NCBI RefSeq assembly: GCF_006716355.1
Contig: NZ_VFOW01000001.1
Location: 248,001 to 312,000, forward strand
Reading direction: 5' to 3'
DNA from: Stackebrandtia endophytica
Lineage (GTDB): Bacteria; Actinomycetota; Actinomycetes; Mycobacteriales; Micromonosporaceae
Length of the DNA: 64,000 bases
Shown here piece by piece: positions 32,045-42,669 of this stretch. Both the position numbers and the translations under genes were made by a program. Position 1 is the first letter of the stretch. The number at the start of each line of letters is the position of its first letter. The notes under the pieces were generated by a model, which saw only the letters and a program-made list of their open reading frames with translations, had not been told where the DNA came from and ran no database searches.

Positions 32045-32064
32045 CTTACTAACTTGTCAGTAAG
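32045..32064. promoter_or_regulatory. TetR operator O1 (GH64/pdxT intergenic region)
   Basis: An interrupted palindrome with half-sites CTTACTAAC and GTCAGTAAG separated by TT, 67 bases upstream of the GH64 ATG. It matches the sites before the GH3 gene and before tetR in both sequence and length. Assignment to the TetR protein of this cluster is inference. Confidence 0.8.
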
Positions 32065-32131
32065 TGTGTTAACGTGACGCACACCGCAATCACCAAACCG
32101 ATCACAAACATCGATACATTTGGAGATCTAT

Positions 32132-33340
32132 ATGGTTTCCCGACGCACCATCCTCGCCTCCGCGTCGCTGGGGGCCCTGACCACTCCGATGTGGCTTCCC
32201 GGCACCGCCACCTCCCGACCCACGATCACCGCCCCCGAGACCTGCGAACTCGCGCTGGAGAACCACGGCGGCGGCAACCTCAACGCCTACGTCACCGGAC
32301 GCGAGTTCGGCACCGACCGCATGGTGCTGCTTCGGGCCGACAGCAGTCTCTACTACCTGGAGGAACCCGGCGCCCCCAACACGCCGCTGCCGGTGGACTG
32401 CTCCATCCCGGTAGGCGACTCCACGGTTCTGACCCTGCCGCGCATGTACGGCGCCAGGATCTACTTCGTCCGAGACGACACGCTGAACTTCTTCGTCAAT
32501 CCCGGGCCGGCACTGGTCGAACCGGCCTTCGCCACCCCGGAGGACTCGAACTACGCCAAGATCTGGTCCTTCGCCGAGTTCACGTTCAACGACTTCCAGA
32601 TATTCGTCAACATCTCCTATGTGGATCTGGTGACCGCGCTGCCGATCGGGCTGACGCTGGTCGGCAATGAGACCCACACCGTGGCGAAACTGCCCGACGG
32701 AGCCGTCGACCGGATCGCCGACGAGCTGGTGGCACAGGCCGCCGCCGACGGGCAGCCGTGGGATCAACTCGTACTGCGCAACGACGCCGGCACCGTCCTG
32801 CGCGCGGTGTCCCCGCAATCGGTCATGGCGCCCTACTTCGACCGTCCCGACGAAATGCCGTTCCGCGACCATTGGACCGCCTACATAGATCAGGTGTGGG
32901 ACAAGTACCGCAGCACCGACCTCTCCGTCGACATCCAGGGCGGCGGCGGTGTGTTCACCGGTCGGGTCGACGGCGACGTCCTCACCTTCACCAACGGGCA
33001 CACCTTCGTCAAACCGGTCTCACGGGACATCTTCACCTGCAACCACGGCCCCTTCACCAACAACCCGGGCGATCCCGATGCCAAGAAGGGCATCCTGGCC
33101 CGGTTGGCGGCGGCCTTCAACCGAACGACCATTCTGGACGTGGCCGATCAACCGAACGGTGCCACCGCCGACGACTACTACCAACATGACGGCACGAACC
33201 ATTGGGCCAGGGCCGTTCATCAGCACTCCCCCATCGGTTACGCATTCCCCTACGACGACGTGCGCCCCGACGGTCAACCCGACGAATCGGGCGCCGCGCA
33301 CGATGAGAATCCACAGCGGTTGACCATCCACGCCGGATAG
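32132..33340 (+). CDS. GH64 endo-beta-1,3-glucanase, Tat-exported
   Basis: A 402-residue secreted glycoside hydrolase family 64 enzyme (laminaripentaose-producing type). The N-terminus MVSRRTILASASLGAL is a twin-arginine signal peptide. The family is recognised from WSFAEFTFND and ISYVDLVTALPIGL (the Glu and Asp expected to be catalytic), CNHGPFTNNPG and PIGYAFPYDDV. It cuts long beta-1,3-glucan chains such as fungal cell-wall glucan, laminarin or callose. ATG at 32132 is used because GGAG is 7 bases before it. It is controlled by the operator at 32045 and followed by a 15-bp terminator; its products should be taken up by the ABC importer downstream. Confidence 0.9.
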   Translation: MVSRRTILASASLGALTTPMWLPGTATSRPTITAPETCELALENHGGGNLNAYVTGREFGTDRMVLLRADSSLYYLEEPGAPNTPLPVDCSIPVGDSTVLTLPRMYGARIYFVRDDTLNFFVNPGPALVEPAFATPEDSNYAKIWSFAEFTFNDFQIFVNISYVDLVTALPIGLTLVGNETHTVAKLPDGAVDRIADELVAQAAADGQPWDQLVLRNDAGTVLRAVSPQSVMAPYFDRPDEMPFRDHWTAYIDQVWDKYRSTDLSVDIQGGGGVFTGRVDGDVLTFTNGHTFVKPVSRDIFTCNHGPFTNNPGDPDAKKGILARLAAAFNRTTILDVADQPNGATADDYYQHDGTNHWARAVHQHSPIGYAFPYDDVRPDGQPDESGAAHDENPQRLTIHAG

Positions 33341-33347
33341 TCGCCGA

Positions 33348-33386
33348 CGGATGGGCCGGACCAGGTTGACGGGTCCGGCCCATCCG
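33348..33386 (+). terminator. Terminator after the GH64 gene
   Basis: A perfect 15-bp stem (CGGATGGGCCGGACC and complement) with a 9-nt loop, 7 bases after the GH64 stop. It separates GH64 from the GH3-led operon, so the two are transcribed from different promoters. Confidence 0.8.
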
Positions 33387-33537
33387 TGCGTCGCCATTCG
33401 ACGACGGGGGGTTTCGCCATCGGGCCAATTCATGCCATGCTCACCCATACCCGTCGAAGTCCGACCGCCGCATTCCCCCGGGGCGCTTCGGTATCGCCCT
33501 CCCGTCTCAGTTCGAGACCCAATCGCAATCTTTCGCA

Positions 33538-33557
33538 CTTACTGACTTGTCAGTAAG
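33538..33557. promoter_or_regulatory. TetR operator O2 (before the GH3 gene)
   Basis: Half-sites CTTACTGAC and GTCAGTAAG are exact inverse complements separated by TT, the most symmetric of the three copies. It lies 52 bases upstream of the GH3 start codon (33610) and probably overlaps the promoter of the glucosidase/ABC operon. Confidence 0.85.
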
Positions 33558-33609
33558 CTTGCTACGATCAGCGCGATATGTGACCCGCCTTACTCCCCCA
33601 GGAGGCCAC

Positions 33610-36051
33610 GTGACAGCACCCGAAGCCGCCACGGTCGAGTCCACAATCAACCATCAACTCGCCGGACTGAGCCTGGCGGACAAGGTCCGGATACTCACCG
33701 GCTCCGGCCCGTGGACACTGCATCCCCTGCCCTCCATCAAATTGCGCCCCATCGCGATGGGCGACGGCCCCGCCGGAATCCGCGGCGTCACCGATCAACC
33801 CACCGAGACCGGCGCCTCCTTTCCGTCTCCCACCGCATTGGCGGCCACCTGGGACCTGAACCTGGCGACCCGATTGGGCGGCCTGTTCGCCGCCGAGGCC
33901 CGTCGCCACAACGTTGACGTGGTGTTGGCGCCGGTGGTGAACCTGCAACGCACCCCGGTGGGCGGACGGCACTTCGAGTGCTTCTCCGAAGACCCGTACC
34001 TGACCGGGGCCGTATCCGGGGCGTTGGTGACCGCGATCCAGGCGACCGGGGTCGCCGCGTGCGCCAAGCACTTCATCGCCAACGACTCCGAGACCGCGCG
34101 AACCGAGTACGTGGCGCACATCGACGAACGCGCGCTGCGCGAGGTGTACCTGGCACCGTTCGAAACACTGGTCACCGAATGTGGTGTGTGGACGGTCATG
34201 GCGGCCTACAACGGACTGCTGCTGGGCGGGGACGACTCCAGCGCGACCGAGCACCATGGACTGCTGACCGGACTGCTGAAGGAGGAGTGGGGTTTCGACG
34301 GGGCCGTCATCAGCGACTGGACCGCCGCGAACACCACCGCACGCACCGCCAACGCGGGTCTGGACGTGGTCATGCCGGGCCCGGGAGGGCCGTGGGAGCT
34401 GTCGCTGCACAAGGCGGTGCTTCAAGGCGAGGTCGCCGAGGAGGTCGTCGACGACAAGGTGCGCCGCATCCTTCGGCTGGCGCATCGGGTGGGCGCCGTC
34501 GGTGATCCCGCCCCCGTCGATTCCGTCGACACCCGCGCACTGCTTCGGGAGTTGGGTGCCCGCTCCACGGTGGTCCTCAAGGACGATCGCGAGCTGATCC
34601 CGCGTCGCGCGGCCGACGTCAAGCGGCTGGCGCTCATCGGTCCCAACGCGGTCGACACGTTCTTCCAGGGCGGTGGCAGCGCCCACGTCAATCCCGATCA
34701 CCTGGTGACGCCCCACCAGGGTCTACGGGCCGCGCTACCGGGCGACACCGTCATCACCGTCTGCCGAGGCGGGTACGCCCGTCCGCACGAACCCGATCTC
34801 GACCCGGCTCGGCTGGTCGAGACGGGTGCTCCGATGCTCGATCTGTTGGACGGCTCCGGCGAGGTCGTCGATTCCATACCGATCGGCGGAGGTTGGGCAC
34901 GCGGACTGGGCGCCGACGCCGCCTCGGCCCGACTGCGTGCCCGTATCCACCTGTCGGAGCCGGGACGCCACTGGTTGGGCGTGGGCACCGTCGGCACGTT
35001 CACCGTCCGCATCGACGGTCGGACCGTCGCCGACGGAGATGTACCGGCGGGGCACGACGTGGTCCTCGATTCCAGCGTCAACGCGCCGCCCTCGCACGGC
35101 GGGTACGTCGAGATCACCGAACCGCGAGACGTCCTGTTGGAGGCCGACCTCCAGATCATCGAGGCGTGGGGACACGGTCGATTCGCCCGTGCCGTGATGC
35201 GCCACCGCGAACCGGGCGCCGACATCGACCAGGAGATCGCCGAAGCCGTTGAGGCGGCCGTCGCGGCCGATGTCGCGGTCGTCATGGTCGGCACCAACAG
35301 CGAGATCGAATCCGAGGGATTCGATCGACCCGATCTCGATCTGCCGGGTCGACAGGATGAACTGATCAGGCAGGTCTGCCGTGCCAATCCGAACACCATC
35401 GTGGTCGTCAACGCCGGTGCCCCGGTCCTGTTGCCCTGGTTGGACGAGGTGTCCACGGTGATCTGGACCTGGTTCCCGGGGCAGGAATGCGGCGATGCGC
35501 TTGCCGATGTCCTCTTCGGTCGCACCGAGCCCTCCGGGCGACTTCCGTGGACGCTTCCGGCCTCGCACCAACAGGTGCCCATCCCCAACGCGATCCCCGT
35601 CGACGGAGTGGTCGACTACCGGGAGGGAATCCACATCGGATACCGCGGTTATCTGAAAGACGATCTGGTTCCGGCGGCGCCGTTCGGACACGGCATGGGC
35701 TGGACCCGGTGGAACTACGACGACATCGACATCCACACATCCGACACCGAGGTCACCGCGTCGGTGACGGTGTCCAACGTCGGCCCCCGGCACGGCCACG
35801 AAACCGTTCAGGCCTATCTGGAGTTTCACGGGGACGGCCCGGAACGTCCTGCCAGGTGGCTGGCGGGGTTCGCGGTCGTCGACGCCGCCCCTGGCGAGAC
35901 CACCACGGCCTCGATTCGCATTCCCGCGCGTGCCTTCCAGGTGTGGGACCCCGACTCGGCCGGATGGCAGACCCCATCGGGCACCTACGTCCTCCAGGTA
36001 GGACGTTCCGTTTCGGACATCCGGTTCACCCGAGACACCCCACATCCGTGA
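33610..36051 (+). CDS. GH3 beta-glucosidase, PA14-containing, cytoplasmic
   Basis: An 813-residue glycoside hydrolase family 3 enzyme. The N-terminal (beta/alpha)8 domain has KHFIANDSE and the nucleophile aspartate in VISDW (about 236). The (alpha/beta)6 domain has GFDRPDLDLPGRQ near 570 with the preceding Glu as likely acid/base. A PA14-like insert fills about 400-520 and a fibronectin-III-like domain ends the protein. No signal peptide, so it acts on imported beta-glucosides. GTG at 33610 is used because AGGAGG precedes it. It heads the operon with the ABC importer and tetR. Confidence 0.92.
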   Translation: MTAPEAATVESTINHQLAGLSLADKVRILTGSGPWTLHPLPSIKLRPIAMGDGPAGIRGVTDQPTETGASFPSPTALAATWDLNLATRLGGLFAAEARRHNVDVVLAPVVNLQRTPVGGRHFECFSEDPYLTGAVSGALVTAIQATGVAACAKHFIANDSETARTEYVAHIDERALREVYLAPFETLVTECGVWTVMAAYNGLLLGGDDSSATEHHGLLTGLLKEEWGFDGAVISDWTAANTTARTANAGLDVVMPGPGGPWELSLHKAVLQGEVAEEVVDDKVRRILRLAHRVGAVGDPAPVDSVDTRALLRELGARSTVVLKDDRELIPRRAADVKRLALIGPNAVDTFFQGGGSAHVNPDHLVTPHQGLRAALPGDTVITVCRGGYARPHEPDLDPARLVETGAPMLDLLDGSGEVVDSIPIGGGWARGLGADAASARLRARIHLSEPGRHWLGVGTVGTFTVRIDGRTVADGDVPAGHDVVLDSSVNAPPSHGGYVEITEPRDVLLEADLQIIEAWGHGRFARAVMRHREPGADIDQEIAEAVEAAVAADVAVVMVGTNSEIESEGFDRPDLDLPGRQDELIRQVCRANPNTIVVVNAGAPVLLPWLDEVSTVIWTWFPGQECGDALADVLFGRTEPSGRLPWTLPASHQQVPIPNAIPVDGVVDYREGIHIGYRGYLKDDLVPAAPFGHGMGWTRWNYDDIDIHTSDTEVTASVTVSNVGPRHGHETVQAYLEFHGDGPERPARWLAGFAVVDAAPGETTTASIRIPARAFQVWDPDSAGWQTPSGTYVLQVGRSVSDIRFTRDTPHP

Positions 36052-36088
36052 CCCGCTTACCCCTATGCCTCGGTAAGGAGACCCCCTC

Positions 36089-37732
36089 ATGAGACGACGC
36101 ACGATATTCAAGCTCCTGGGCGGAGCCGGTGCCGCAACCTTCCTCGCCTCCTGCGGCGACGGTGGCGGTGGCGCCGCCCGCGTGCTGACCGTGGGCCTGC
36201 CCAACGGCGCGCTCACCGAGAACCACAACCCGTTCATGCCCGACTCCGCCGCCAACAAACTCGGGTACCGGTGGCTGATATACGAACCGTTGGCGCAGGT
36301 CAACATGATCGCGCCCGACTCCGACCCGACACCGTGGCTGGCCACCGCGTGGACTTGGAACGAGGACTACACCAGCATCGAGCTGACGATCCGCAATGAC
36401 ATCACTTGGACCGACGGCAAACCGCTCACACCCGACGACGTCGCGTTCACGTTCAATCTGCTGCGCGACAACGACGCGCTGAACACCGAGGCACTGCCGT
36501 TCGTCGAGGCCACCGCCGCCGGCGACGTCGTGACCGTTGGCTTCGAGACCCCGCAGTTCATCAACCAGGGCAAGGTGCTGGCGAGTATGGTGCTGCCGCA
36601 GCACGTCTGGGCTGCCATGGACGACCCGTCGACCGACATCAACCTCGATCCGGTCGGTAGTGGGCCGTACGTGCTCAAAAGCTGGACCACCCAGGTCGTC
36701 ACCCTCGAACCCAACACCGAGTACTGGGGTGGGAAGCCCGAAATCCCCGAGATCCGGTTCACCTCGTACAACGACAACAACGCTCAGACCACCGCACTGG
36801 CCAACGGGGAATGCCAGTGGTCCTATGTATTCATCCCCGACTACCAGAAGATCTACATCGACAAGGATCCGCAGAACCATCACCTCTGGTTCCCCTCGGG
36901 ACTGGGCATCCACGGTCTGTGGATCAACCACGCCCGCCCGCCGTTCGACAACCTCGCGCTACGCCGGGCCATGAACATGGTGATCGACCGGGTCATGGTT
37001 CACGAGATCGGCGAGTCCGGTCTGTATCCGTTGGTGGACAATCTGACCGGAATTCCACGCCCCGCCGGTGACGCCTTCATCGCACCGGAGTATCGGGACG
37101 CCACCCACCAGGTCGATGTCGACGGGGCCCGGTCCATCCTGGAGGAGGCCGACTTCGACTGGGATGCCGACGGCAACCTGCTGACGCCCGACGGCGATCC
37201 GGTGACGATGGTGCTCTGCGATCCCGCCGGCTGGTCGGACTACCTGGCGTCGCTGGCCATCATCGCCGACAACCTCAAGGTGATCGGTATCCAGGCCACC
37301 GTGGACGCCCTCGAACCCGACGTCTGGTTCGACGCGATCGCGGTGGGCGACTTCGACGGCATGCTGCACTGGACGGCCACCGGGGTCACCCCGTACGAGA
37401 TCTTCGCCAACTGCATGGACCAGGCCTACTACAAGGAGCTCGGCGAGTCGGCATCCTGGAACTTCGGCCGGTTCGACAGCCCTGAGGCAACCGAGGCGCT
37501 GCGCGACTACGCCGCGACCGTCGACGACGAGGTCCGCGACAAGGCGATGGCCACTCTGCAGCGAATCATGGTCGAGGAGGTTCCCATGATTCCGCTGGTG
37601 GCGGGACCGATCGGTGCCCAGTACTCCACCAAGCACTGGGTGGGATGGCCCAGTGAGGACGATCCATATGCGATGCCGCAGCCGACGCAACCTAGCATGT
37701 CGCAGATCGTCATGCGGCTCAAACCTGCCTGA
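36089..37732 (+). CDS. ABC importer substrate-binding lipoprotein, family 5 (Opp/Dpp type)
   Basis: A 547-residue extracellular solute-binding protein of the Opp/Dpp family 5, a family that also includes oligosaccharide (cellobiose and laminaribiose) binders. The N-terminus [14 protein letters not shown] is a Tat-like signal ending in lipobox FLASC. It should bind the oligosaccharides released by GH64 and pass them to the permeases; the exact ligand is not readable from the sequence. AAGGAG precedes the ATG. A strong hairpin lies between it and the ATPase gene, likely to let it be made in excess. Confidence 0.88.
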
Positions 37733-37737
37733 TTCGT

Positions 37738-37767
37738 CGCCCGACCCGGTCGCGACCGGGTCGGGCG
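37738..37767 (+). terminator. Attenuator hairpin between binding protein and ATPase genes
   Basis: A perfect 30-base palindrome: arms CGCCCGACCCGGTCG and its complement with no loop spacer, 5 bases after the binding-protein stop. It probably stops part of the transcripts, as is common in importer operons where the binding protein is needed in excess. Confidence 0.65.
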
Positions 37768-37823
37768 GCGGAGCGTCCGCGTGGACCTCTTCGGTTCTCC
37801 CCTCTTCGACCGATGGATTGCCC

Positions 37824-38825
37824 ATGACAACCACTCACTCGTCCCGTTCCCTCGATGACCCGGTTCTGGCGGCACGCTCGTTGAGTAAGCGTTTTCGGCT
37901 CAGCCGGGGCCGCAACCAATACCTTCACGCCGTCGACGGCGTCGATCTCGACCTTCACCGGGGCACCGTGGTCGCGCTGGTCGGCGAGTCGGGCTCCGGA
38001 AAGTCCACCGTGGCGAGATTGATGGCGCAACTGCATCCAGCTACCGGCGGTTCAATCGAATTGGACGGTGAGTCTGTCAAAGTCAAGGGCGGCAGGCGAT
38101 TTCGGGCCTATGCCCGGCAGGTGCAACTGATACTGCAGGACCCGTTCGCCTCGCTCAACCCGATTCACACCGTTCGTTACGTGCTGACCCGGTCACTGCG
38201 CATCCATCATCCCGGCCTGCGGGGTGACGCCCTGGAGGAGCGGCTGGGGGAACTGTTGAGCAAGGTTCATCTGCAACCCGATCGGTTCCTGGAGAAATTC
38301 CCACACGAACTGTCGGGCGGGCAGCGGCAACGGGTGTCGATCGCCCGTGCGCTGGGAGCCCGTCCACGAGTCCTGTTGGCCGACGAGCCGGTATCCATGT
38401 TGGACGTGTCGATTCGGTTGGGGGTGTTGAACCTGCTGACCGAACTCAAGAACGAACTCAACCTGGCGATCCTCTACATCACCCACGACATCGCCTCGGC
38501 CCGCTACTTCGCCGACGAGACGATCGTCATGTACGCCGGGCAGATCGTCGAACGAGGAGACTCCGAATCGGTCACCCAACGACCCGCCCATCCGTACACA
38601 CGGCTGTTGATCGCATCGGCGCCCGATCCCGACGCACTCGGCGAAACCGCCGCCGTCGACAACGCCGGTGAGCCCCCCAGCCTCATCAATCCGGTCCCCG
38701 GCTGCCGATTCGCGCCACGCTGCCCGTCGGTGATGGAACGGTGCCGAACCGAGACCCCGCCGACGTTTCCGTTGAGCGGGAGCTCATCGGCCGCCTGCTG
38801 GCTGTACGAGGAGGGCACCCGGTGA
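37824..38825 (+). CDS. ABC importer ATPase (Opp/DppF type)
   Basis: A 333-residue ABC ATPase. Walker A is GESGSGKST (about 54-62), signature LSGGQRQRV, and Walker B VLLADEP followed by the usual DVS. The C-terminal oligopeptide-type extension has the cysteine-rich GCRFAPRCP box. It powers the import with its partner ATPase at 40816. ATG at 37824 is chosen at the start of the domain; the frame is open upstream. The stop overlaps the next GTG start by 4 bases. Confidence 0.92.
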
Positions 38826-39802
38826 GATACCTATTGCGACGGGGTGCCTTCTACCTGCTCACCGCGTGGGCCGCCATCACATTGAACTTCTTCATCCCCC
38901 GGATGTTGCCGGGTGACCCGGTGCGCTCCCTCATCAACCGATTCCAGGGACGCATCAGCGTCGAGGCCACCGAATCGCTCTACATCCTCTTCGGACTGGA
39001 CGAGGAACGTCCACTATGGCGCCAGTATCTGGACTACTGGGGCAACCTGTTCTCCGGAGACCTCGGCCTGTCCTTCGCCTACTTCCCCACCCCGGTTTCC
39101 GACATCATCGCTCAGAGTCTCCCGTGGACACTGGTCCTGGTCGGCCTGTCCACCATACTCAGCTTCCTGCTGGGCACCATGCTGGGCATCTGGGTGGGGT
39201 GGCGCCGGGGCACCTGGGCCGACGGACTGCTTCCGGTGACCAACTTCTTCGCCGCGATCCCCTACTTCTGGATCGGGCTGCTGGCCATCGCGTTGTTCGC
39301 CGTCGTCTGGCCGGTCTTTCCCGCCTCGGGCGGATACGACGGCGGCCTGATCCCGTCGGCAACCCCCGAATTCATCGGATCGGCCGTCTACCACGGCATC
39401 CTCCCCGCCGTCACGATCATCATCAGCTCGATGGCCGGATGGATTCTGGGCATGCGCAACATGATGGTCACGGTGTCCTCGGAGGACTACGTGACGGTCG
39501 CCCACGCGAAGGGTCTGCCCGAGCGCCAGGTGATGATCGGCTACGCCGCGCGCAACGCGATCCTGCCCAACATCTCCGGTTTCGCGTTGTCACTGGGCTT
39601 CATCGTCGGCGGCACCCTGGTCACGGAGATGGTGTTCACCTACCCGGGCATCGGATACATGCTCTATCAGGCCGTCGGCGCCAAGGACTATCCGCTGATG
39701 CAGGGATTCTTCCTGGTCATCACGTTGTCGGTACTGGTCGCCAACATGCTGGCCGACATCGCCTACGCCGTACTCGATCCCCGGACCCGCCAGGAGGCAT
39801 GA
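38822..39802 (+). CDS. ABC importer permease (DppB type)
   Basis: A 326-residue membrane permease with six predicted helices and the DppB-type N-terminus ([31 protein letters not shown]). The EAA-like loop is [19 protein letters not shown] at 38822 overlaps the upstream TGA in a GTGA. With the DppC-type permease it forms the translocation path. The next start is 3 bases after its stop. Confidence 0.92.
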
Positions 39803-39805
39803 GAC

Positions 39806-40819
39806 ATGGTCACCGCCGTAGAACCCCCGGCCGTATCCCCCGGAACGGGCACGGGCCGACGATCACGACGCGGTACCGGCCTGATGTTCCTGCGAAACCG
39901 CAAGACCGTCACCGGACTGATCATCCTGGCCTTCTTCATCGTGCTGGCGGCCATCGGGGACGTCATCGCGCCATACGATCCGTCCGCGACCTCACCCGTC
40001 GGCCTGCAACCGCCGTCGGCCGACCACCTACTGGGCACCACGTCGCTGGGACAGGACATCCTGTCGCAGATACTGGTCGGCACCCGCGGCGTCCTCGTGG
40101 TCGCGTTTCTGGCGGGTGTGTTGGCGACGGTCCTGTCGGTGCTGGTCGGTATCACCGCCGGATACCTCGGCGGCACCAGTGACGAGGTGCTGTCGTTGGT
40201 GTCCAACATCTTCCTGGTCATCCCGGCGCTGCCGTTGATCATCATCGTCACCGGTCTGCTGCCCAGCGCCGGCGGTCTCACCATCGCCCTGATCATCGCG
40301 CTGACGGGCTGGGCCTGGGGTTCACGGGTGCTGAGGGCTCAGACGCTGTCGCTGCGCCGCCGTGACTTCGTCGAGGCGGCCCGAGCCAACGGCGAATCCA
40401 CCTGGCGCATCATCCTCTTCGAGATCCTCCCCAACCTCACCGCCGTCATCGCCTCGGGTTTCATCGGCACCGTCATCTTCGCGATGCTGTCGGAGATCAC
40501 GTTGGCGTTCATCGGCGTCACCAGCATCAGCGATTGGAACTGGGGAACCATCCTGTTCTGGGCGCAGAGCAATCAGGCGCTGGCCATGGGCGCGTGGTGG
40601 TGGTTCGTGCCGGCCGGACTGTGCATCGCCGGAGTCGGCACCGCCCTGACCCTAATCAACTTCGGCATCGACGAATTCGTCAACCCTCGACTGCGCAGCA
40701 CCGGCCAGAACGCGAAAGTGCTGCGCGCCAAGAAGATACGTGCCCGCGTCGGATTCACGCCGGTGCTACGCGACACGGCGGCCACCGCTGAGCCGTCGTC
40801 GGGAAGGGAATCGGCATGA
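39806..40819 (+). CDS. ABC importer permease (DppC type)
   Basis: A 337-residue permease with six helices. A cytoplasmic N-terminal region precedes NRKTVTGLIILAFFIVLAAI. The EAA loop is RRDFVEAARANGESTWRII. It pairs with the DppB-type permease. Its end overlaps the next gene's ATG by 4 bases (ATGA), a sign of tight translational coupling. Confidence 0.92.
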   Translation: MVTAVEPPAVSPGTGTGRRSRRGTGLMFLRNRKTVTGLIILAFFIVLAAIGDVIAPYDPSATSPVGLQPPSADHLLGTTSLGQDILSQILVGTRGVLVVAFLAGVLATVLSVLVGITAGYLGGTSDEVLSLVSNIFLVIPALPLIIIVTGLLPSAGGLTIALIIALTGWAWGSRVLRAQTLSLRRRDFVEAARANGESTWRIILFEILPNLTAVIASGFIGTVIFAMLSEITLAFIGVTSISDWNWGTILFWAQSNQALAMGAWWWFVPAGLCIAGVGTALTLINFGIDEFVNPRLRSTGQNAKVLRAKKIRARVGFTPVLRDTAATAEPSSGRESA

Positions 40820-41868
40820 ACGTCCACAGTAATCAGCCGGTGTTGGAGATCCGGAACCTCAGCGTCGATTACGGCTACGACGACACCGCCATACGCGCAC
40901 TGCGCGGCGTCGATCTGACCCTGCATGCCGGCGAGGTACTGGGGCTTGCCGGTGAAAGCGGGTGCGGCAAGTCGACACTCGCCTATGCGGCTACCCGGTT
41001 GCTACCGCCCCCGGGGCTCATCACCGGAGGCGAGGTCGTCTTCACCAGCACTCGCGACGATCGCCGATTCGATCTGCTGCGCGCCGACGACCGACTGTTG
41101 CGGGCCAGCCGCTGGGAGGACACCGCGATCGTGTTTCAGGGCGCGATGAACTCGCTCAACCCGGTGTATCGGATCGGGCGGCAACTCACCGACGCGATCG
41201 CGGCTCACCGCCCGCGGCAGTCGGCGGCCGAGCGGACCGCGCGTGCCCACGAACTGCTGGAACTGGTGGGGATTCCGGGCGACCGATTGCGCAGTTACCC
41301 CCATCAATTGTCGGGTGGAATGCGGCAACGGGTCATGATCGCGATGGCGTTGGCCTTGGAGCCACAGATCGTCATCATGGACGAGCCGACGACCGCCCTC
41401 GATGTGGTGGTGCAGCGGCAGATCATCCAGCAGTTGATGCGATTGCGCACCGAACTGGGTTTCGCGGTCGTGTTCATCACCCACGACGTGTCGCTGTTGA
41501 TAGAGCTGGCCGACCGGATCGCGGTCATGTACGCCGGTCAGATCATCGAGGACGCCACCGCCGTGGAGATGTACCGCGCACCCCGCCACCCCTACACGGA
41601 CGGTCTGCTGCATTCGTTTCCGCCGCTGCACGGTCCGCGGCAGGAATTGGGCGGAATCCCCGGTTCGCCACCGGACTTGATGGCGCTTCCCTCCGGATGT
41701 GCGTTCGCGCCACGTTGTCGGTTCGCGTTCGACCGATGCCGGACCGATCAACCGGTGTTGACCAAAACGGCACTCGGTGATGAGGAGCCGCACCGACGGG
41801 TCGCATGTCTTCAGCACGATCGCGACGTCACCGCCATCCCCGATTCGTTGATGGTCAGACATTCGTGA
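40816..41868 (+). CDS. ABC importer ATPase (Opp/DppD type)
   Basis: A 350-residue ABC ATPase. Walker A is GESGCGKST, the signature LSGGMRQRV, and Walker B IVIMDEPTTALD. The C-terminal GCAFAPRC box is the oligopeptide-type extension. It is the second ATPase of the importer. The operon continues after 112 bases to tetR, whose start region holds operator O3. Confidence 0.92.
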   Translation: MNVHSNQPVLEIRNLSVDYGYDDTAIRALRGVDLTLHAGEVLGLAGESGCGKSTLAYAATRLLPPPGLITGGEVVFTSTRDDRRFDLLRADDRLLRASRWEDTAIVFQGAMNSLNPVYRIGRQLTDAIAAHRPRQSAAERTARAHELLELVGIPGDRLRSYPHQLSGGMRQRVMIAMALALEPQIVIMDEPTTALDVVVQRQIIQQLMRLRTELGFAVVFITHDVSLLIELADRIAVMYAGQIIEDATAVEMYRAPRHPYTDGLLHSFPPLHGPRQELGGIPGSPPDLMALPSGCAFAPRCRFAFDRCRTDQPVLTKTALGDEEPHRRVACLQHDRDVTAIPDSLMVRHS

Positions 41869-41932
41869 TGTCGGAACGGATGCGGCCCGACGCGGCGCGC
41901 ACCATCCGATGACTGTGCCCGAGACCACACAA

Positions 41933-41952
41933 CTTACTAACCATTTAGTAAG
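41933..41952. promoter_or_regulatory. TetR operator O3 (before tetR)
   Basis: Half-sites CTTACTAAC and TTTAGTAAG separated by CA, a one-mismatch version of the O1 and O2 palindrome. It ends 28 bases before the tetR ATG. Suggests autoregulation. Confidence 0.8.
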
Positions 41953-41980
41953 TAGTCGCAATCGAAGTAGGCTTAACGCT

Positions 41981-42646
41981 ATGACCGATGCCAACGGGAA
42001 CGCCACGTCCACCCGTCCCGCGAAGGAGAAAGGCCCACGACAGCTACGTTCCGAACAACGCCGTCAGGAGATTCTCCGCGCCGCCGCCGCCACGTTCGGA
42101 GCGCGCGGCTACCGCAACGGCTCCCTCGGCGAGATCGCGGACCAGGTTGGCATCACCCACGCCGGCATCCTGCACCACTTCGGTTCCAAGAACCAACTGC
42201 TGTTGGAGGTTCTGGACTACCGGGACCAGGTCGATGTCGAACAGTTGGAGGGACAGCACCCGCCCGAAGGCCTGCCACTGTTCAAACACCTGGTCGACAC
42301 CGCCCGGAACAACACCCGCCGCCCCGGCATCGTCCAGACCTACGCGGTCCTGTCCGCCGACTCCGTCACCGACGACCACCCGGCACAGGACTACTTCCGT
42401 GACCGGTTCACCGGTCTGCGCACCATGATCGGCCGATCGCTGGCCCAGGTCTGCGACCCCGACGACATGCCGTCGGATTCCGACATCGACACCGCCGCAT
42501 CGGCGATCATCGGAGTCATGGACGGACTTCAGGTCCAGTGGCTGCTCGACGAGGACGCCGTCGACCTGCCTGACGCCACCGCGTTCGCCATCGACGCGAT
42601 CCTGTCGGCGCTGATCGCCGGACGCACCGGAGAACGCCTTCGCTGA
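41981..42646 (+). CDS. TetR family repressor of the beta-glucan cluster
   Basis: A 221-residue TetR regulator. The N-terminal helix-turn-helix reads RQEILRAAAATFGARGYRNG followed by LGEIADQVGITHAGILHHF. The C-terminal ligand domain is of the TetR_C_33-like kind, ligand unknown; a sugar is plausible but TetR ligands are usually small hydrophobics. ATG at 41981 is chosen at the domain start; an in-frame ATG at 41909 lies upstream of the operator. Three copies of the same palindrome in this cluster strongly suggest it controls GH64, the GH3-importer operon and itself. A hairpin follows. Confidence 0.9.
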   Translation: MTDANGNATSTRPAKEKGPRQLRSEQRRQEILRAAAATFGARGYRNGSLGEIADQVGITHAGILHHFGSKNQLLLEVLDYRDQVDVEQLEGQHPPEGLPLFKHLVDTARNNTRRPGIVQTYAVLSADSVTDDHPAQDYFRDRFTGLRTMIGRSLAQVCDPDDMPSDSDIDTAASAIIGVMDGLQVQWLLDEDAVDLPDATAFAIDAILSALIAGRTGERLR

Positions 42647-42648
42647 TC

Positions 42649-42669
42649 GTCTGACCAATCCGGTCAGAC
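42649..42669 (+). terminator. Hairpin after tetR
   Basis: An 8-bp stem GTCTGACC/GGTCAGAC with a 5-nt loop starts 2 bases after the tetR stop and closes the beta-glucan cluster. No T tract. Confidence 0.55.

What the first reader, a model, noticed from the sequence alone, without database searches (positions are those of the whole stretch)
32045..42669. Self-contained beta-1,3-glucan degradation and uptake regulon
Sequence shows a Tat-exported GH64 glucanase, a cytoplasmic GH3 glucosidase, an Opp/Dpp-type ABC importer (binding protein, two ATPases, two permeases) and a TetR regulator in one block, with three copies of one palindrome before GH64, the GH3 operon and tetR. Family knowledge gives the enzymes; that laminari-oligosaccharides are the imported substrate and TetR the sensor is inference. 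An Opp-type importer for glucan oligomers under a TetR (not LacI) regulator would be unusual.
Basis: partly seen in the sequence, partly recalled or inferred. Interest (0 to 1): 0.75.

Follow-up and report, generated by a model that had tools for sequence, protein, structure and literature searches.

The report
TetR-controlled beta-1,3-glucan uptake regulon
An actinobacterium appears to keep its genes for cutting up, importing and digesting beta-1,3-glucan (a fungal and algal sugar polymer) under one TetR-type switch, whose likely DNA site also marks a far-away glucan-cutting enzyme and recurs in related bacteria.

Summary
In detail: GH64, GH3, an Opp-type binding protein, two ATPases, two permeases and tetR lie in one block, with near-identical 20-bp palindromes before GH64, GH3 and tetR. 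The only other site in the 5.66-Mb genome within one change of the 12 core bases lies 4 Mb along the contig, before its only PF00722 (GH16) match, a laminarinase homologue. In nine genomes, own included, 7 of 12 sites outside the tetR loci precede GH16 genes. Two Stackebrandtia hold the whole block and its sites. Among top-scoring TetR relatives, 23 of 30 have such a site within 350 bp; many sit by GH3 and/or Opp genes. So the substrate is very probably beta-1,3-glucan, and 'self-contained' is wrong. Two 'unusual' claims fade: a T. maritima laminaribiose-binding protein is of this family (PMC3850815), and TetR-type beta-glucoside regulators, BgrT, were predicted in 2016 (PMC4746261); the window's TetR groups with one from a probable Bifidobacterium genome. 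TetR's ligand, the imported sugar and GH3 preference remain inference; the GH3's best solved relative, BcpE2, cuts laminaribiose poorly (PMC9426481).

The parts
32045..32064 (.). operator-like palindrome before GH64
   Evidence: kept in the two Stackebrandtia relatives L047 and L048 while flanks diverge
32132..33340 (+). GH64 beta-1,3-glucanase, 402 aa; N-terminus MVSRRTILASASLGALTTPM looks Tat-type (read by eye)
   Evidence: PF16483 6e-114; best PDB 7vtl 4e-174; E149 and D165 align with E120 and D136 of chain 3gd0
33538..33557 (.). operator-like palindrome before the GH3 gene
   Evidence: kept in L047 and L048
33610..36051 (+). GH3 beta-glucosidase, 813 aa, no signal peptide seen by eye; start codon uncertain
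   Evidence: PF00933, PF01915, PF14310; NF052330 1058 bits, below its cut-off of 1300; best PDB 7pjj 4e-187
36089..37732 (+). Opp-type (SBP_bac_5) lipoprotein binding protein, 547 aa; LASC lipobox read by eye
   Evidence: the 14 best PDB sequences include a named chitin-oligosaccharide binder (1zty), a named mannoside binder (4pfu) and tmCBP (4jsd); others bear generic peptide-transporter names
37824..38825 (+). OppF/DppF-like ATPase, 333 aa
38822..39802 (+). OppB-like permease, 326 aa
39806..40819 (+). OppC-like permease, 337 aa
40816..41868 (+). OppD/DppD-like ATPase, 350 aa
41933..41952 (.). operator-like palindrome before tetR
   Evidence: outer half-sites kept, middle varied in L047 and L048
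41981..42646 (+). TetR-family regulator, 221 aa
   Evidence: PF00440, PF13977; in one clade with a TetR from a probable Bifidobacterium genome
42649..42669 (.). 8-bp inverted repeat GTCTGACC/GGTCAGAC after tetR, terminator-like
   Evidence: read by eye, not folded

Best explanation
A TetR repressor of the BgrT branch binds the 20-bp palindrome CTTACT-N8-AGTAAG before GH64, before the GH3-SBP-OppF-B-C-D operon, before its own gene and before a GH16 laminarinase gene about 4 Mb along the contig. Without glucan it holds them low. When beta-1,3-glucan (fungal wall glucan, laminarin or callose) is present, basal secreted GH64 and GH16 release gluco-oligosaccharides; the lipid-anchored binding protein and the Opp-type ABC importer take them up; the cytoplasmic GH3 cuts them to glucose; an imported oligosaccharide or a product of it releases TetR. 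Shown by computation: genes, families, sites, their positions and conservation. Inferred: TetR binding, repression, the inducer, the imported chain length, and GH3 activity on laminari-oligosaccharides.
For: The fourth palindrome is 46 bases before the only PF00722 match of the genome, whose best solved relatives are beta-1,3-glucanases and laminarinases. Sites outside the tetR loci in nine genomes (own included) precede GH16 in 7 of 12 cases; G519 and G483 too have one PF00722 match each, both with the site. Eight-gene synteny with three sites in two Stackebrandtia; G480 has GH64-GH16-GH3-SBP-Opp-tetR in one run. In 30 loci of top-scoring TetR relatives, 23 have a site matching at least 10 of 12 core bases within 350 bp of tetR; the other such sites in those loci lie before GH3, GH64 or, in L140, what looks like a sugar importer. 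In 15 further loci 13 have such a site somewhere in the locus. At zero mismatches 11 of 16 genomes with TetR relatives hold 13 sites, against 1 for the reversed control. The binding protein's best solved relatives include sugar binders, tmCBP (laminaribiose and laminaripentaose complexes 4JSD, 4JSO) among them. Close relatives of the importer lie beside GH16, GH55 or GH30 genes.
Against: BcpE2, the best solved GH3 relative, has Km 6.6 mM and kcat/Km 1.33 for laminaribiose and prefers aryl and monolignol glucosides (PMC9426481, passages). Of the 12 sites outside the tetR loci, 5 do not precede GH16; of 13 PF00722 matches in six of these genomes, 5 have no listed site. Reversed control patterns are as common as the real one in several genomes. 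In 16 genomes of other families the 3 distal exact sites (G189, G210, G137) were not seen to precede beta-glucanases. Of TetR relatives, 7 of 30 have no site within 350 bp, and 2 of 15 none in the locus, with those of L176, L178 and L182 kilobases from tetR. GH30 neighbours match glucosylceramidase best where tested, so substrates may vary. Most of the 14 best solved relatives of the binding protein carry peptide-transporter names in the PDB. No binding or expression data exist. Both AlphaFold models were too poor to use.
Confidence: 0.82

Rival explanations
1. The system is for mixed beta-1,3/1,6-glucan of fungal walls, and the imported sugars include beta-1,6-linked oligomers.
For: Relatives of the importer or of the TetR lie beside GH30 genes in L033, L049, L083 and L086, and beside GH55 in L039. 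That some GH30 enzymes are beta-1,6-glucanases is recalled.
Against: None of the eight genes of the window's block is GH30; the best solved match of the tested GH30 is a glucosylceramidase, and its subfamily was not resolved.
Confidence: 0.2
2. The regulon answers a signal (hormone-like or aromatic), not a sugar: it is an antifungal lysis programme, and uptake is secondary.
For: The best NCBIfam match of TetR is the ScbR autoregulator-receptor family, 67.7 bits, far below the cut-off of 150. GH64 and GH16 enzymes attack fungal walls (family knowledge).
Against: The sites cover importer and cytoplasmic glucosidase, a nutrient pathway; the TetR groups with one from a probable Bifidobacterium beside GH3 genes.
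Confidence: 0.1
3. The GH3 and importer serve plant glycosides (heterosides) as BcpE2 does; the glucanases free access to them.
For: BcpE2 is promiscuous and prefers aryl glucosides (PMC9426481, passages).
Against: GH64 and GH16 genes carry the same site; importer relatives lie by GH16 and GH55.
Confidence: 0.08
4. The importer carries peptides or other ligands and only shares the operon.
For: NCBIfam names of the matched models are mostly peptide or nickel, and most of the best PDB matches carry peptide- or oligopeptide-transporter names.
Against: All ten NCBIfam matches of the binding protein are far below their cut-offs; entries known as sugar binders (1zty and 4pfu by name, 4jsd by PMC3850815) match at E 4e-38 or better, and the first match outside this set of 14 has 7e-23.
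Confidence: 0.04

Closest known systems
BgrT, TetR-family beta-glucoside/galactoside regulators of Bifidobacterium and other Actinobacteria (PMC4746261)
   Same: TetR family, 18-22 nt palindrome, beta-glucosidase genes beside it; window TetR is in one clade with a TetR of a probable Bifidobacterium genome that has GH3 genes and a similar site
   Different: the passages and section read name beta-glucoside and beta-galactoside hydrolases, cellodextrin phosphorylase and MFS or ABC transporters; secreted GH64/GH16 glucanases, Opp-type importers or distal glucanase operators are not in them
Thermotoga maritima tmCBP operon (PMC3850815)
   Same: binding protein of the same family that binds laminaribiose and laminaripentaose, in an operon with an ABC transporter and an endoglucanase, laminarin predicted as substrate (passages)
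   Different: no TetR control described in the passages read; protein match only E 4e-38
Importer loci with LacI or ROK in relatives (L031-L036, L049; L039)
   Same: same binding protein and OppF-B-C-D set, glucan-type GH neighbours
   Different: LacI (Pfam-tested in L035 and L049) or ROK (L039) gene beside them in place of TetR; GH1 after the importer where tested, L033
GusR/UidR of E. coli (PMC9881133)
   Same: repressor called TetR/lysR family there, controls a glycosidase operon and is released by a glycoside (passages)
   Different: ligand is a glucuronide; its sequence was not compared here

Membership tests
BgrT (PMC4746261) | TetR family | tested here: met
   PF00440 7e-14, PF13977 3e-08
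BgrT (PMC4746261) | on one branch with the bifidobacterial regulators | tested here: inconclusive
   clade of 26 rows, support 96/88, holds the window TetR and L175 from G752, taken as Bifidobacterium by an exact match to a recalled 16S primer. In favour, but that L175 is one of the paper's BgrT was not checked by accession, and the one outgroup has a very long branch
BgrT (PMC4746261) | 18-22 nt palindrome before tetR and target genes | tested here: met
   20-bp palindrome at four places. The paper's logos could not be compared
BgrT (PMC4746261) | co-located with beta-glucosidase and transporter genes | tested here: met
BgrT (PMC4746261) | beta-glucoside as effector | not testable with these tools
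   needs a binding assay; only presumed in the paper passages read
GH64 | Pfam family and catalytic E/D pair | tested here: met
   PF16483 6e-114; E149/D165 align to 3gd0. That these are the catalytic pair (Glu154/Asp170 of LPHase) is recalled
GH3 BetGlucosiCelf0468 (NF052330) | score over the curated cut-off of 1300 | tested here: not met
   1058 bits
ScbR autoregulator receptor (NF041196) | score over the cut-off of 150 | tested here: not met
   67.7 bits
Opp-type sugar-binding proteins | SBP_bac_5 domain and solved sugar binders among the nearest kin | tested here: met
   names of 1zty and 4pfu, and PMC3850815 for 4jsd
Opp-type sugar-binding proteins | binds beta-1,3-gluco-oligosaccharides | not testable with these tools
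   needs a binding assay; the model is too poor for pocket analysis

The most novel reading that the evidence does not exclude
The TetR protein itself binds an imported beta-1,3-gluco-oligosaccharide, and this TetR-plus-palindrome module is paired with one Opp-type glucan importer and GH3 across several actinobacterial families, in place of LacI or ROK in sister lineages, with distal recruitment of secreted GH16 enzymes and, in one species, of a small secreted metalloprotease-like protein.
Probability: 0.45. Interest if true: 0.62.

Novelty: new variant of a known kind. Interest (0 to 1): 0.47.

Why it matters
It ties secreted beta-1,3-glucanases, an oligosaccharide importer and an intracellular glucosidase of actinobacteria to one TetR switch with a specific DNA word that can be used to find fungal-wall and laminarin utilisation genes in other genomes. 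It gives the predicted BgrT group a concrete polysaccharide target, and a direct test of whether a TetR protein can sense an oligosaccharide.

Tried and rejected
Structure prediction of TetR and of the binding protein from shallow alignments (3 and 4 rows) gave mean pLDDT 54.9 and 48.4; both were dropped and no fold search was run. Counting sites as evidence was dropped for scans with mismatches, because the reversed control pattern is as common or more common in several genomes. A GH30 neighbour was compared with solved structures to see what kind it is; the best match was a glucosylceramidase, so left open. No paper describing this regulon was seen in the rows listed by six searches: 20 of 128 papers, 20 of 41, 20 of 90, 1 of 1, 12 of 103 and 8 of 40. 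The library holds open-licence papers only; the TetR review PMC3811609 is not held.

Labelling choices: in the OppB tree I labelled L031, L033-L036 and L049 as LacI. LacI was Pfam-tested only in L035 and L049, was read by eye in L031, L032 and L034, and was not cleanly called in L033 and L036. In the TetR tree a row was labelled as having a site if one lies anywhere in its locus. My ORF caller miscalled several genes, and long outputs were cut, so absence of a neighbour is weak evidence.
Full report
What is there. The window lies at 248001-312000 of a one-contig genome of 5,663,490 bases; its closest named relatives in the scan are Candidatus Stackebrandtia excrementipullorum and Stackebrandtia albiflava. 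Eight genes on the plus strand run from 32132 to 42646: GH64, GH3, an Opp-type binding protein, ATPase, permease, permease, ATPase, TetR. The coordinates of the finding run from the first palindrome to an 8-bp inverted repeat after tetR, read by eye. GH64 has an RR-type signal and the binding protein an RR and a lipobox; these are readings by eye, not predictor results.

The palindromes. Three 20-bp sites precede GH64, GH3 and tetR. None of 100 shuffles of the window reaches the observed number, but the pattern was taken from the sites. The independent test is the genome scan. With up to three mismatches to the longer pattern, the genome holds the three sites, one further site at 4372840 (two mismatches) and three weak ones, 5 forward matches against 5 for the reversed control. 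With the 12 core bases and up to one mismatch it holds four sites: the three and 4372840, against 7 for the control. That fourth site, about 4 Mb along the contig, lies 46 bases before a 416-aa secreted protein with GH16 and ricin-B lectin domains. PF00722 (GH16) matches once in this genome. The best solved relatives of this protein are beta-1,3-glucanases and laminarinases. PF16483 (GH64) also matches once.

Related genomes. One search scanned nine genomes (the own one and eight of its genus or family group) with up to one mismatch and listed 27 places. Fifteen lie in the tetR loci (in one of them, G495, the site is 3.7 kb from tetR). Of the other twelve, seven precede GH16 genes: one each in G000, G519, G480, G500 and G483 and two in G538. 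Two of these seven only just pass Pfam's cut-off, L148 at 22.6 and L152 at 23.5 bits against 22. Two more, in G480, precede small secreted proteins without a Pfam match. Three (in G480, G554 and G488) have inner bases that are not palindromic and look like chance; the context of the G480 one was partly cut from the output. G519 and G483, like the own genome, have one PF00722 match each, and each carries the site. In six of the genomes PF00722 matches 13 times: seven have the site, one lies inside the GH64 run of G480, and five have no listed site. The reversed control pattern gives as many or more matches in several of these genomes, so position, not number, carries the argument. In 16 genomes of other groups, chosen because they have TetR relatives, exact core matches number 13 (in 11 genomes) against 1 for the control; ten are at tetR loci, and the three others (G189, G210, G137) were not seen to precede beta-glucanases. 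The one in G189 lies before an ABC operon that looks CUT2-type by eye.

Conservation. L047 and L048 hold all eight genes in the same order, proteins 69-90% identical, with three sites. The outer half-sites stay while the flanks diverge; short conserved words directly after the GH64 and GH3 sites may be -10 boxes (inference). In G480 the run is GH64, GH16, GH3, binding protein, Opp genes, tetR. Close TetR relatives are not universal: 30 of 394 genomes of the class match at E 1e-40, 24 of 101 of the family group at 1e-35, not G554 of the same genus, and 218 of 396 of another order at the looser 1e-18. I took 30 loci of TetR relatives (44-88% identical), the better matches plus L037. In 23 of 30 a site with at least 10 of 12 core bases lies within 350 bp of tetR; three more have one elsewhere in the locus. 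Random 350-bp stretches of the same loci, known sites masked where listed, reach 10 or more in about 0.13%, and part of that is unmasked real sites. Of the 20 loci drawn from the class, 14 have the GH3 and/or the binding protein with Opp genes next to tetR, and two more have GH30, Pfam-tested in L083 and by sequence cluster in L082; for the other four no such neighbour was seen. In 15 further loci chosen by me, 13 have a site somewhere in the 15-18 kb; seven have GH3 plus importer and three the importer with a different GH3. The recognition-helix region is close to THAGILHHFGSK in most of the 30.

Importer. The 14 best solved sequences for the binding protein have E 3e-49 to 4e-38. They include a named chitin-oligosaccharide binder (1zty), a named mannoside binder (4pfu) and tmCBP (4jsd); others carry generic or peptide-transporter names, and that the 6lz and 5yqw entries are Vibrio chitin-oligosaccharide binders is recalled. 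The first match outside this set has 7e-23. Of tmCBP, passages of PMC3850815 say that it was crystallised with laminaribiose and laminaripentaose (4JSD, 4JSO) and lies in an operon predicted for laminarin. Among 101 genomes of the order, 19 have a binding protein at E 1e-60 or better; ten, the own one included, are the close group at 48% identity or more. The loci of the nine others were fetched (L031-L039). L037 has TetR and GH3 like the window. L031-L036 are of one genus and, with the Streptomyces locus L049, show LacI (Pfam-tested in L035, L049), GH1 (L033) and GH30 (L033, L049); L038 has GH16; L039 has ROK and a GH55-type match to 4pew at 1e-172, the GH55 label being recalled. In the OppB tree TetR-linked and LacI-linked importers form neighbouring groups, with 4 label changes in all against a shuffled mean of 11. 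I read this as regulator replacement, with the labelling limits told under Tried and rejected.

GH3. Its best solved relative is BcpE2 (7PJJ). Passages of PMC9426481 give laminaribiose Km 6.6 mM and kcat/Km 1.33 against 376 for salicin. This is the weakest link of the substrate claim: either this GH3 differs from BcpE2 or it is a generalist in the pathway.

The regulator. Its closest known kind is BgrT. PMC4746261 (passages, and the whole of the section on TetR factors) predicted TetR-family regulators of beta-glucoside and beta-galactoside genes in bifidobacteria and other Actinobacteria, with an 18-22 nt palindrome. In a tree of 47 rows the window TetR falls in a clade of 26 (support 96/88) with L175 from G752. 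G752 carries an exact match to a recalled Bifidobacterium 16S primer, and L175 has GH3 and GH30-like genes and a site CTTACTGACTCATCAGCAAG. So 'TetR, not LacI' has precedent. E. coli GusR, called TetR/lysR family in PMC9881133 (passages), is released by glucuronides. What appears new is the link of this kind of regulator to secreted beta-1,3-glucanases, near and distal, and to an Opp-type importer. The rows listed by the paper searches showed no description of it, within an open-licence library and capped lists only.

Verdict. A real, conserved regulon for beta-1,3-glucan use under a BgrT-like TetR: a new variant of a known kind. Shown: genes, families, sites, distal GH16 neighbours, conservation. 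Inferred: TetR binding, repression, ligand, imported oligomer, GH3 specificity.

Noticed in passing
L150:3125-3580 (G480, near base 3957129): An exact core palindrome precedes a 151-aa secreted protein with HEKAHTDGWGH, which fits the metzincin zinc motif HExxHxxGxxH (motif recalled); no Pfam match. It may be a secreted protease in the glucan regulon.
   Followed up: partly
L151:3140-3502 (G480, near base 2825886): A one-mismatch palindrome precedes a 120-aa secreted protein without a Pfam match.
   Followed up: partly
L137 (G488:C1:1428000-1447900) and L103: Only tetR (70% identical) with a one-mismatch site and an OppD C-terminal fragment were found; the cluster looks lost.
   Followed up: no
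L140:10202 (G495): TetR relative whose locus has the site before what looks by eye like a CUT1-type sugar importer, 3.7 kb from tetR.
   Followed up: no
L154:3057 (G189) and L155:3058 (G210): Exact palindromes far from tetR, one before an apparent CUT2-type sugar ABC operon, one before an acetyltransferase-like gene followed by a LacI-like gene (by eye).
   Followed up: no
L095-L099 (family f31): TetR relatives with altered sites such as CTTACTTAATATTTATTAAG (L098 has none reaching 10 of 12); the GH3 was seen beside it in L096 only, targets in the rest unknown.
   Followed up: no
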